In this document: positions 49,701 to 52,700 of the stretch, one piece after another
Position numbering within the stretch: position 1 is the first letter of the stretch
How the letters are laid out: each line of letters begins with the position of its first letter
Assembly: GCA_916610825.1 (NCBI GenBank)
Contig: OU744453.1
Coordinates: forward strand, 3,912,724-3,976,723
Source of the DNA: Haliclystus octoradiatus
Lineage: Eukaryota > Cnidaria > Staurozoa > Stauromedusae > Haliclystidae
Direction of reading: 5' to 3'
DNA: 64,000 nucleotides
Translations under genes and position numbers: made by a program
The notes under the pieces: generated by a model
What the model saw: only the letters and a program-made list of their open reading frames with translations
Databases searched by the model: none
What the model was told of the DNA's origin: nothing

Positions 49701-52700
49701 GATGTATGGCATATTGCACGTTCGATAATAAAAAAAATTGTAAAAGCTGGTAAAAATAAAGAACATATTGTACTTAATAAATGGATTAAAGGCATAAAAA
49801 ACCACCTTTACTGGTGTGCAACATCTACAAAACAAGGATTTGGCGACTTACTTGTTGCCAAATGGACGTCATTAATTAGACACATTTCTAACAAACACAA
49901 CAACCATGGTAACAAGCTTTTCCCCAAGTGTGCCCATGATAGCACACTGGAAGCAAGAAGCTGGATCAAAATAGGTTAATTGACTTAATGCGTCGCGCAT
50001 TAGTAAACATTTTTAAAACATTTAACTTGACAGTGAACTTTAATTTTTCACACTATAGGTACAAAGTCATATGACACGCTGCACAATATTATTATGGACA
50101 CACGTATTCTAAAAGCCATCAGAAAAATGTCGTGTGAAATACAAACAAGCTGCATTGAAGGATACCATGCCACGCTGAACCACTGGCACCCAAAAATGAC
50201 TTGTTTCTCCTATTTAGGCTCAAAATGCAGGTATGTTTTTGTGATCATTCAATTGTATATTGCTTTACCTATCATAGCCACTGCTACTGTGGTTTTCAGC
50301 TAGGCTACAGTGGCTAGCACAGTGAATTAATTGCTAATAGAACTTGGAAGATTACTTTTTGGATAAGTTCAGGTGAGAGACTTGTATATATAATATTTTT
50401 CTCTTGATAACTTTACTATGCTCATTTCGTATCAGGATTATTTTAGCCATTCTTCATTTTAACGAAAATTTGAAAAGAAAAACAATGAAAACCAAAACAG
50501 GTGAAAATTATTACCATGTTGTTTATCCAAAATATAAGCTTGGAGAGGAAAGTGTAAGAGAAATAGCAGTTCCACCAACTTACGGTGAGATAATTTATAT
50601 TAGCATACCATAGTTGTAATTTAAATTGGAGTTATTGAACCATTCTCATACAACTCTCGTTTTATATTCATTATTTAGACTATGTTAGGCAAGTGAAAGA
50701 TGTTTTGTTTGGTAAAAATGTAAAGGATTTAAAAACAATTGCAGAACAGAGCAAGGCAGGAGTCCCTGCACCCTTAACCAGTCAATTCACTGATCGTCCA
50801 ACAAGAGAAGCTGCAATTGAAAAACACAAATCAAAGTTGCATACTGATGTAGCACTATTCCCACCAGGTAATTTGGACTAAATAATTAAATTTAAAATAT
50901 TATACTGTATAGTTGTCTGTATTTATGAATTGCTTTTTTGTTCTCCAATTTCTCACACACAGTGAATGAACAAGAATTACTCATCCAACAATCAATTGCA
51001 ATCGCCAAGGCAACCAACAAGTCAACTGCTGCAAAAAAGCAGAGAATGTGCAGAAAATGTAATTTTCCAATGAAGGGTCATCCCCGCGGTCGATGCCCCG
51101 TTGGCACAGATATCAGCTACAAAGAATGAGCATATTGTTGAAATAGTTAAAATATTTATTTAAATGTATATAATCATGATGATGTTTTATTCCCTTTCTA
51201 GTGCAGATTTGTAGCCCGATCCTCCACCACTTTGAAATCGAGATCGGATGTGATTATAAACACACGCAGGTAAAGGTCGTGTGTTGTCCCATCCCATTGA
51301 GCCAAATATCCACCTTACAATCCATCTATATGCCACAGCTCTTAGGTATCTAGAATAATGCAAAAAACTTTGATAACTAACAACTCACAAATTCTTGATT
51401 ATTTAAGGTTATAGGGGTCCTGTTACTTTTTGATAGTGAAATATGAATGTTGATTGTGTACTGATTGCATTACCCTTATGTACCCCTTATCTGCCTATTG
51501 GTTTAATTCTGGCAATTTATTAGTACGATATTATGTAGTCACTGTAACAACTATTTGAAATTCCTTTTTAATAAATTTTTAATTTTATACATACTCATTG
51601 CGTGATTGATTTGGTTTACGCTTGTACCCTCTGCCACTCCTGTCTTTCAAGAGAGGGCCAGCTTGCATAAGCACAGTCTCATTTGTAAGTGCACTGAAAT
51701 CAGGATGCATCATTACGCATGGCTTATCAATTCCTTCAAAGCTGAGTATTCCCTGTGCTGGAAGAACCTCTGAACAGCACCGATACTCTCTGGCACCAAC
51801 CAATACCTCCACTTTACAATTTGTACATTTACACCTAAGACAATAGGACATAAGTCGACATTCAATTCATGACATTCAAATCTAGATAAAACCGGGTAAG
51901 ATTCATGGCTTTAATTCTCATACAACAAGAAGTTATATATTCCATTATTCTATCATAGATATTAAGATATCTTATATTGTAAGAAATATCTGTAGATTTT
52001 TAAGTAGAGCATTTATGTTTATGTAATAATGCTGATCAATTTTTCAATTACCATTCGCGGTTCTAAATGATGTCCAAGTCACTCATACGGATGGCATAAC
52101 ATCATACATAAATCTAAAGGCAGATTTATTCAAAAACATTGCGAAAAGTTGGATATTGCATACAAATGTATACCCACCATTCTTTTACTGGGATTACCCC
52201 TTCGTATCTGGCTTCGATAGTTTCCTGCAGAAGACCATCTTCGTCGACAAACATATTTGAAGTTTCTTCTTGTTCGTCAGCCAATGGTTCATCTTCGTAT
52301 GCTCTTACTTTCGTCGTGAACTCTAAACAAATCCCTTCTGAATCATCACTGACATCACTGCTATCGATGTGGCTTGATGAAGATTCGCTAGCGCTTGAAG
52401 ACATAGCTCTGTTATGTTGGCTAAATAGCTAAGCTCCTGTTCTTCTTGTGTTCTTTGTCACGCTGTGATCAACGATTCTTGTACTTGCAAACCTTGTGAC
52501 GTCACGCAACAGTTCTGTTCGTCTCGCAAATACTACAACTTCAAAACTAATTAAATATGATTTAAACGCGCGATATCACTAATTGTTTTGCATTTTATAA
52601 CTTTGTGATACATAAACTTTACATTTAATAAATAAAAACATGGGGTGATTTTTCGATGCATAGGCCCTTTAAAATTTGTACTTAAAAGAAGAAAACGTTT

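What the first reader, a model, noticed from the sequence alone, without database searches (positions are those of the whole stretch)
51187..52404. Kolobok transposon carries a gene for a P2X7 C-terminal-like protein
Seen: three exons inside the terminal repeats of a Kolobok element encode 209 residues with EWCKCTNC, YRCCSEVL, CVMMHPDF and YRWIVRWIFGSMGWDN. Known: the P2X7 cytoplasmic ballast domain has such zinc-binding cysteines and related free-standing proteins exist in several animals. Inference: at least some free-standing copies travel as second genes of Kolobok transposons, and capture from such an element could explain the domain's appearance in P2X7. I am not aware of this link being described.
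Basis: partly seen in the sequence, partly recalled or inferred. Interest (0 to 1): 0.88.

Follow-up and report, generated by a model that had tools for sequence, protein, structure and literature searches.

The report
Kolobok transposon with P2X7-tail-like gene
A jumping gene in this animal genome really does carry a second gene related to the tail of the immune receptor P2X7, but that link was already published in 2022, so this is a well-supported further example of it.

Summary
Window 47502-52668 is a 5,167-bp Kolobok-type DNA transposon with TTAA on both sides. It has a THAP-DDE transposase gene on the + strand and a convergent three-exon gene on the - strand (52404-51187, 209 aa). That protein passes the Pfam P2RX7_C cut-off (38.9 against 23.5 bits). 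The predicted fold of a relative matches P2X7 tails. The three loci that match both ends of the element carry the gene, at different TTAA sites.

The novelty claim fails. Kojima & Bao 2022 (PMC9587614) named this second protein KolX, matched it to P2X7 residues 476-595, and concluded that P2X7 is a P2X4-KolX fusion.

Beyond the parts of that paper I read: the genome holds a second, deeply split KolX clade, also in a TTAA-flanked element, and P2X7 tails group with that clade (unrooted, long P2X7 branch). A related family spread after losing its catalytic core; its KolX drifts neutrally. About ten transposase loci had no KolX found within 7 kb. KolX's job remains unknown; a zinc-folded accessory to transposition is my best inference.

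The parts
47498..47501 (.). TTAA target site, left copy
   Evidence: TTAA also flanks both ends of the two other full copies
47502..47527 (+). left terminal inverted repeat, 5'-AGGGCCTATGCATCGAAA...
47672..47693 (.). subterminal inverted repeat GCGTGACGTCACAAGGTTTGCA, left copy, upstream of the transposase ATG
47709..48080 (+). transposase gene, N-terminal part with THAP domain (first ATG 47709; exon end not fixed)
   Evidence: PF05485, 51.2 bits; ATG
48970..49450 (+). transposase exon with first catalytic D (GDGRFDSMGHSAKYG); edges approximate
49536..49976 (+). transposase exon with second D (VSDRH) and DxxH (DVWH); PF20700 Mutator-like match when scanned alone
   Evidence: not listed for the joined protein
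50061..50231 (+). transposase exon with catalytic E (CIEGYH); edges approximate
50437..51129 (+). three C-terminal transposase exons, ending in a CxxC-H-C knuckle; edges approximate
51187..51349 (-). KolX exon 3 with stop codon (RAVAYRWIVRWIFGSMGWDN...)
51595..51834 (-). KolX exon 2 (zinc cysteines CKCTNC, RCC, PCVMMH)
52178..52404 (-). KolX exon 1 with start codon (acidic, Ser-rich N-terminus)
52486..52507 (.). subterminal inverted repeat, right copy, upstream of the KolX ATG
52643..52668 (-). right terminal inverted repeat
52669..52672 (.). TTAA target site, right copy

Best explanation
The feature is the KolX gene of a two-gene, cut-and-paste Kolobok DNA transposon. Shown: the transposon's ends, TTAA sites, THAP domain and DDE residues, the convergent KolX gene, its ballast-type cysteine pattern, the P2X7-like predicted fold of a relative, and dispersed copies. 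Inferred: the transposase binds the ends through its THAP domain and moves the whole unit, so KolX spreads with it. KolX most likely acts as a zinc-folded accessory protein of transposition, for example by binding the transposase, a host factor or a guanine nucleotide (about 0.5 for a direct role in transposition). Capture of a KolX gene by a P2X4-like gene making P2X7 is the published view; the data here are compatible with it and point to another KolX clade as the closer relative.
Confidence: 0.93

Rival explanations
1. KolX is a passenger: an old captured gene that rides in Kolobok elements and does nothing for transposition.
For: In 25 aligned copies of family 2 (24 of them without a transposase core within 7 kb) coding changes look neutral: N/S 3.58 observed, 2.92 expected; 10 of 26 copies have an unbroken KolX. 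18 transposase-core rows, about ten loci, had no KolX within 7 kb.
Against: Across the 27 aligned relatives the cysteines and much of the RxVAYRW...W...RPLxAC pattern are fixed in 90% or more, and the convergent KolX-transposase pairing recurs in two deeply split clades, which passive cargo would hardly keep.
Confidence: 0.25
2. The flow went the other way: a host ballast-domain gene was captured by a Kolobok element, and P2X7 took its tail from the host gene, not from a transposon.
For: Rump et al. 2020 (PMC7016195) saw free-standing ballast genes from sponges to fish and read them as host genes with an ancestral linkage.
Against: In this genome one or more copies of each of three families that I followed lie inside elements with TTAA at both ends (window family; L054; L056). 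The main text of that paper has no hit for 'transpos', and ticks also hold relatives of the transposase, so its linked markers may be transposon genes (not tested).
Confidence: 0.15
3. A host P2X7-tail-like gene happens to lie beside or inside an unrelated transposon insertion.
For: None found beyond the general possibility of nesting.
Against: The gene repeats with the element at three sites whose bases next to the TTAA differ, and the pairing recurs in other families.
Confidence: 0.02

Closest known systems
Kol0 lineage of Kolobok with KolX (Kojima & Bao 2022, PMC9587614; type Kolobok-1_XT)
   Same: TTAA target sites, 5'-RR ends, DDD/E transposase with C/DxxH, second protein KolX similar to the P2X7 tail
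   Different: Another host and family; the THAP domain and convergent layout were measured here, and no Repbase sequence was available to place it on their tree
P2X7 receptor cytoplasmic ballast (PDB 6u9v, 9e3m and others)
   Same: Seven zinc cysteines, predicted fold (of a relative), R546 and R578 counterparts (R159, R191) by reading
   Different: No channel part; P2X7 tails group with a different KolX clade
Nanor and free-standing ZCD proteins (PTHR36981; Rump et al. 2020, PMC7016195)
   Same: Short proteins with the ballast domain at the C-terminus and a variable N-terminus
   Different: Treated there as host genes; here the gene is inside a mobile element. Kojima & Bao call Nanor a likely domesticated KolX

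Membership tests
Kolobok superfamily | TTAA 4-bp target site duplication | tested here: met
   Both sides of the window copy and of the two other full copies
Kolobok superfamily | Termini 5'-RR ... YY-3' (unlike piggyBac) | tested here: met
   TTAA|AG at both ends; definition from PMC9587614 Background
Kolobok superfamily | DDD/E transposase with C/DxxH between second D and E | tested here: met
   D116, D183, D204-W206-H207, E328 in alignment A3 of 16 rows
Kolobok superfamily | Zinc finger between C/DxxH and E, third C conserved (all lineages but Kolobok1) | tested here: met
   H264, H269, C280 and H282 invariant in A3; which residues bind zinc is my reading; definition
Kol0 lineage | Second protein KolX, similar to P2X7 tail | tested here: met
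   P2RX7_C 38.9 bits; ballast fold in a relative
Kol0 lineage | Place in the transposase phylogeny of Kojima & Bao | not testable with these tools
   Their alignment is a supplementary file; supplementary look-ups were capped at 0 and Repbase is not held
KolobokP/E/D | CCHC zinc finger after the first D | tested here: not met
   Two cysteines between the first and second D, by reading the sequence used
KolobokP/E/D | Added nuclease domain (His-Me finger, lambda-exonuclease-like, DEDDh) | tested here: not met
   No Pfam nuclease over its cut-off in the frames scanned; one 67-aa frame, window 48285-48485, matched PDDEXK_10 at 13.3 bits against a cut-off of 21.2
P2RX7_C (PF20478) | Score above the curated cut-off | tested here: met
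   38.9 against 23.5 bits, residues 62-199
P2RX7_C (PF20478) | Sequence match to a solved P2X7 tail | tested here: not met
   No hit for the window protein or a 27-row profile at E 0.1; met by L001 of the second clade, E 1.8e-16
P2X receptor | ATP-gated channel domain (PF00864) in the same gene | tested here: not met
   All 7 PF00864 matches lie at C6:164905-170528; the nearest KolX locus is about 2.5 Mb away

The most novel reading that the evidence does not exclude
The P2X7 tail descends not from the window's KolX subtype but from a second, deeply split KolX clade, some of whose members carry an extra cysteine-rich N-terminal exon. One genome still holds both clades as Kolobok elements with TTAA at their ends. 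This would name the donor type for the P2X7 fusion more closely than 'a Kol0 Kolobok'.
Probability: 0.45. Interest if true: 0.5.

Novelty: new member of a known kind. Interest (0 to 1): 0.27.

Why it matters
It confirms, in another genome and with copy-level evidence, that a domain of a human inflammation receptor has mobile relatives, and it gives a natural set of free-standing ballast domains for biochemistry. It also warns that ballast genes annotated as host genes, and their apparent ancestral linkage, may be transposon genes. The central claim is already in print, so the added value is the clade placement and the neutral-drift result.

Tried and rejected
Sequence search of the PDB with the window protein and with a 27-row profile found nothing; the link to solved P2X7 came through L001 of the second clade and through the predicted fold of a relative.

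Considered and rejected: that KolX is kept by selection in core-deleted elements and so works in cis. Comparing 24 copies with L054 (25 aligned copies; a 26th, L070, dropped as badly aligned) gave N 43, S 12, stop 5 in 618 coding sites, N/S 3.58 against an expected 2.92. Without the one autonomous copy in that set (L055) it was 3.82 against 2.95. Within the 9 unbroken copies compared with L054, N/S was 2.17 against 2.69 expected (N 13, S 6), a slight lean the other way that the choice of unbroken copies itself produces. So no purifying selection was shown. Splice sites were not checked.

Considered: that the ballast genes of the second clade are host genes. Five of eight loci have a convergent transposase core within 7 kb, and the L056 element has TTAA|AG at both ends. 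Three of eight (C8:4321206, C2:22600103, C8:13679168) had no core hit and remain undecided, though the last two are 83-94% alike to L001 in DNA.

The search with L001's frame gave only 7 proteins, none named, so the tree is thin on that side. Left out of the tree: P0037 (no WC start), P0026 to P0030, L002 (in-frame TGA), L007 and L008.

The joined 521-aa transposase gave no Pfam match over a cut-off, and the Mutator-like match was not listed there; I do not know why. Its identity rests on relatives and catalytic residues.

Papers: PMC9587614 outline and abstract, Background, sections 10 and 16, and passages (section 12 among them); PMC7016195 outline and abstract, sections 11 and 14, passages; PMC6004289 outline, abstract and one passage; PMC9319628 two passages, a chance co-occurrence. 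Others only as search listings.

Full report
What is there. Pfam finds P2RX7_C at 38.9 bits, over its cut-off of 23.5. The gene lies in a 5,167-bp unit, 47502-52668, whose ends are inverted repeats starting AGGGCCTATGCATCGAAA, each preceded by TTAA. The + strand of the unit encodes a transposase: a THAP domain (51.2 bits) and, for one exon scanned alone, a Mutator-like match (32.2 bits) that was not listed when the joined 521-aa protein was scanned. In an alignment with 15 relatives, picked from 120 listed, the second D, DxWH and E are invariant and the first D is at 90% or more. The two genes run towards each other.

Copies. The left 219 bases (10 rows) and the right 1,489 bases (18 rows) both match at 99% at C2:30531257-30536425 and C1:8434634-8439792. 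Each of these copies has TTAA at both ends, with different bases next to it. So the three loci that match both queries all have the KolX gene. KolX reads open only in the window copy; of the others, one reads a stop at the exon 1/2 junction and one a frameshift in exon 1. Other rows are partial. With the transposase end: three in a repeated stretch of C7, which match only the first 427 bases in the stretch held, and pieces on C10 and C6. With the KolX end: short matches at L042 to L045, L047 and L050; in the stretches held one search showed one end or none for these, so no two-ended copy without KolX was seen, but they were not followed further.

Other families in the same genome. A KolX protein search gave 121 exon matches. 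I reduced these to 45 loci, leaving out six lone matches at E above 0.01 and four rows that belong to the second clade; one weak locus (C8:4768799, E 0.086) was kept because DNA matches it too. A transposase-core search gave 80 matches, entered as 52 rows that cover every locus. Thirteen of 45 KolX loci have a core within 7 kb, 12 of the 13 convergent; the exception is C4:14206633. Of 8 loci found by the P2RX7_C profile itself, 5 have a core within 7 kb, all five convergent. Conversely, 18 core rows, about ten loci, have no KolX within 7 kb. The tool's counts are lower bounds. The control genomes gave 0 of 14.

Core-deleted family. A second family (ends TTAA|AGTGCCTATGAAATG) has a copy with the core, L055, and a 3.6-kb form, L054, which lacks about 1.9 kb with the catalytic core but keeps THAP, the C-terminal exons and KolX. 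Four other loci with enough sequence (L026, L028, L024, L023) run collinear with it through the junction (L027 is the same locus as L054), so one derivative spread. KolX is unbroken in 10 of 26 copies, five of them identical. Coding differences look neutral. KolX is therefore most likely a passenger in this derivative.

Second KolX clade. L001 to L006 carry ballast domains scoring 72-102 bits in the genome search. L001 finds four distinct P2X7 sequences in the PDB, best E 1.8e-16. L005 and L006 are two copies of one element, each with TTAA|AG at the KolX end. In L056, the same locus as L005 fetched wider, the far end is also TTAA|AG, which makes the element about 6.5 kb. A maximum-likelihood tree of 41 domains splits this clade plus three mammalian P2X7 tails from the window clade with support 100/100. 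Limits: unrooted, P2X7 branch length 3.35, bootstrap not settled, sampling seeded from two queries, and most forks inside the clade are open. In L001 and L003 a cysteine-rich frame lies upstream of the ballast exon, and protein P0033 has both parts in one chain. L005 shows no such frame of 80 aa or more, and P0036 lacks it.

Elsewhere. The 30 KolX relatives include scyphozoans, corals and amphioxus; 128 transposase relatives (120 listed) add fish, molluscs, echinoderms and ticks. In amphioxus the two proteins are Hypp6571 and Hypp6572, consecutive names with the same listed contig length.

The P2X gene. All 7 matches to the P2X channel family lie at C6:164905-170528, about 2.5 Mb or more from any KolX locus on that contig, so no P2X-ballast fusion was seen in this genome.

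Prior work. Kojima & Bao 2022 (PMC9587614; passages, sections) describe the Kol0 lineage with its second protein KolX, its similarity to human P2X7 476-595, and state that P2X7 arose by fusion of a P2X4-like gene with KolX. Rump et al. 2020 (PMC7016195) had described the ballast domain across animals; its main text has no hit for 'transpos' or 'mobile'. I did not see the two-clade split, the Cys-rich exon or the core-deleted form in the parts I read; supplementary files could not be read, so I do not claim they are new to print.

How it works. Shown: a mobile unit with two genes, a conserved cysteine pattern, and a ballast-type fold predicted for a relative. From established knowledge: DDE transposases cut and paste, and THAP domains bind DNA. 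Inferred: KolX helps transposition in trans as a zinc-folded accessory. Against this stand the neutral drift in the derivatives and the broken KolX in two of three full copies, which are also what dead copies would show if KolX were a trans-acting helper.

Verdict. New member of a known kind, with a modest refinement of which KolX clade is nearest to P2X7.

Noticed in passing
window 47672-47693 and 52486-52507; L054 176 and 194 bases from its ends: A subterminal inverted repeat centred on TGACGTCA (a CREB/ATF-type site, recalled) lies upstream of both genes in the window element, and a similar CGTGACGTCAAGAGTTGTACACA pair lies in family 2. L056 of the second clade has only one such site, 77 bases from its left end. 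It could be a shared promoter element or a transposase-binding site.
   Followed up: partly
L001 2758-3063 (-), L003 2636-2950 (-), protein P0033: Cysteine-rich exon (TCSRRSGKKSGCPCKDAKRFCSAACLCGKK) next to, and in P0033 joined to, the ballast domain in the second KolX clade; no Pfam match for the L001 and L003 frames.
   Followed up: partly
L054 (C1:14019900-14027400) and its copies: A Kolobok derivative that lost its catalytic core but kept THAP and KolX spread to many near-identical copies.
   Followed up: yes
G000 C4:14199936-14209343: Two KolX matches and a transposase core in an arrangement that is not convergent for the nearer pair; perhaps nested insertions.
   Followed up: no
window 57152-57246 and 57352-57492: Two neighbouring imperfect hairpins (79% and 81% complementary) whose arms look related by eye; possibly small foldback elements.
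   Followed up: no
window 53446-53770: Long AAT repeat of about 320 bases, followed by TA-repeat stretches at 53925-53979 and 54297-54339.
   Followed up: no
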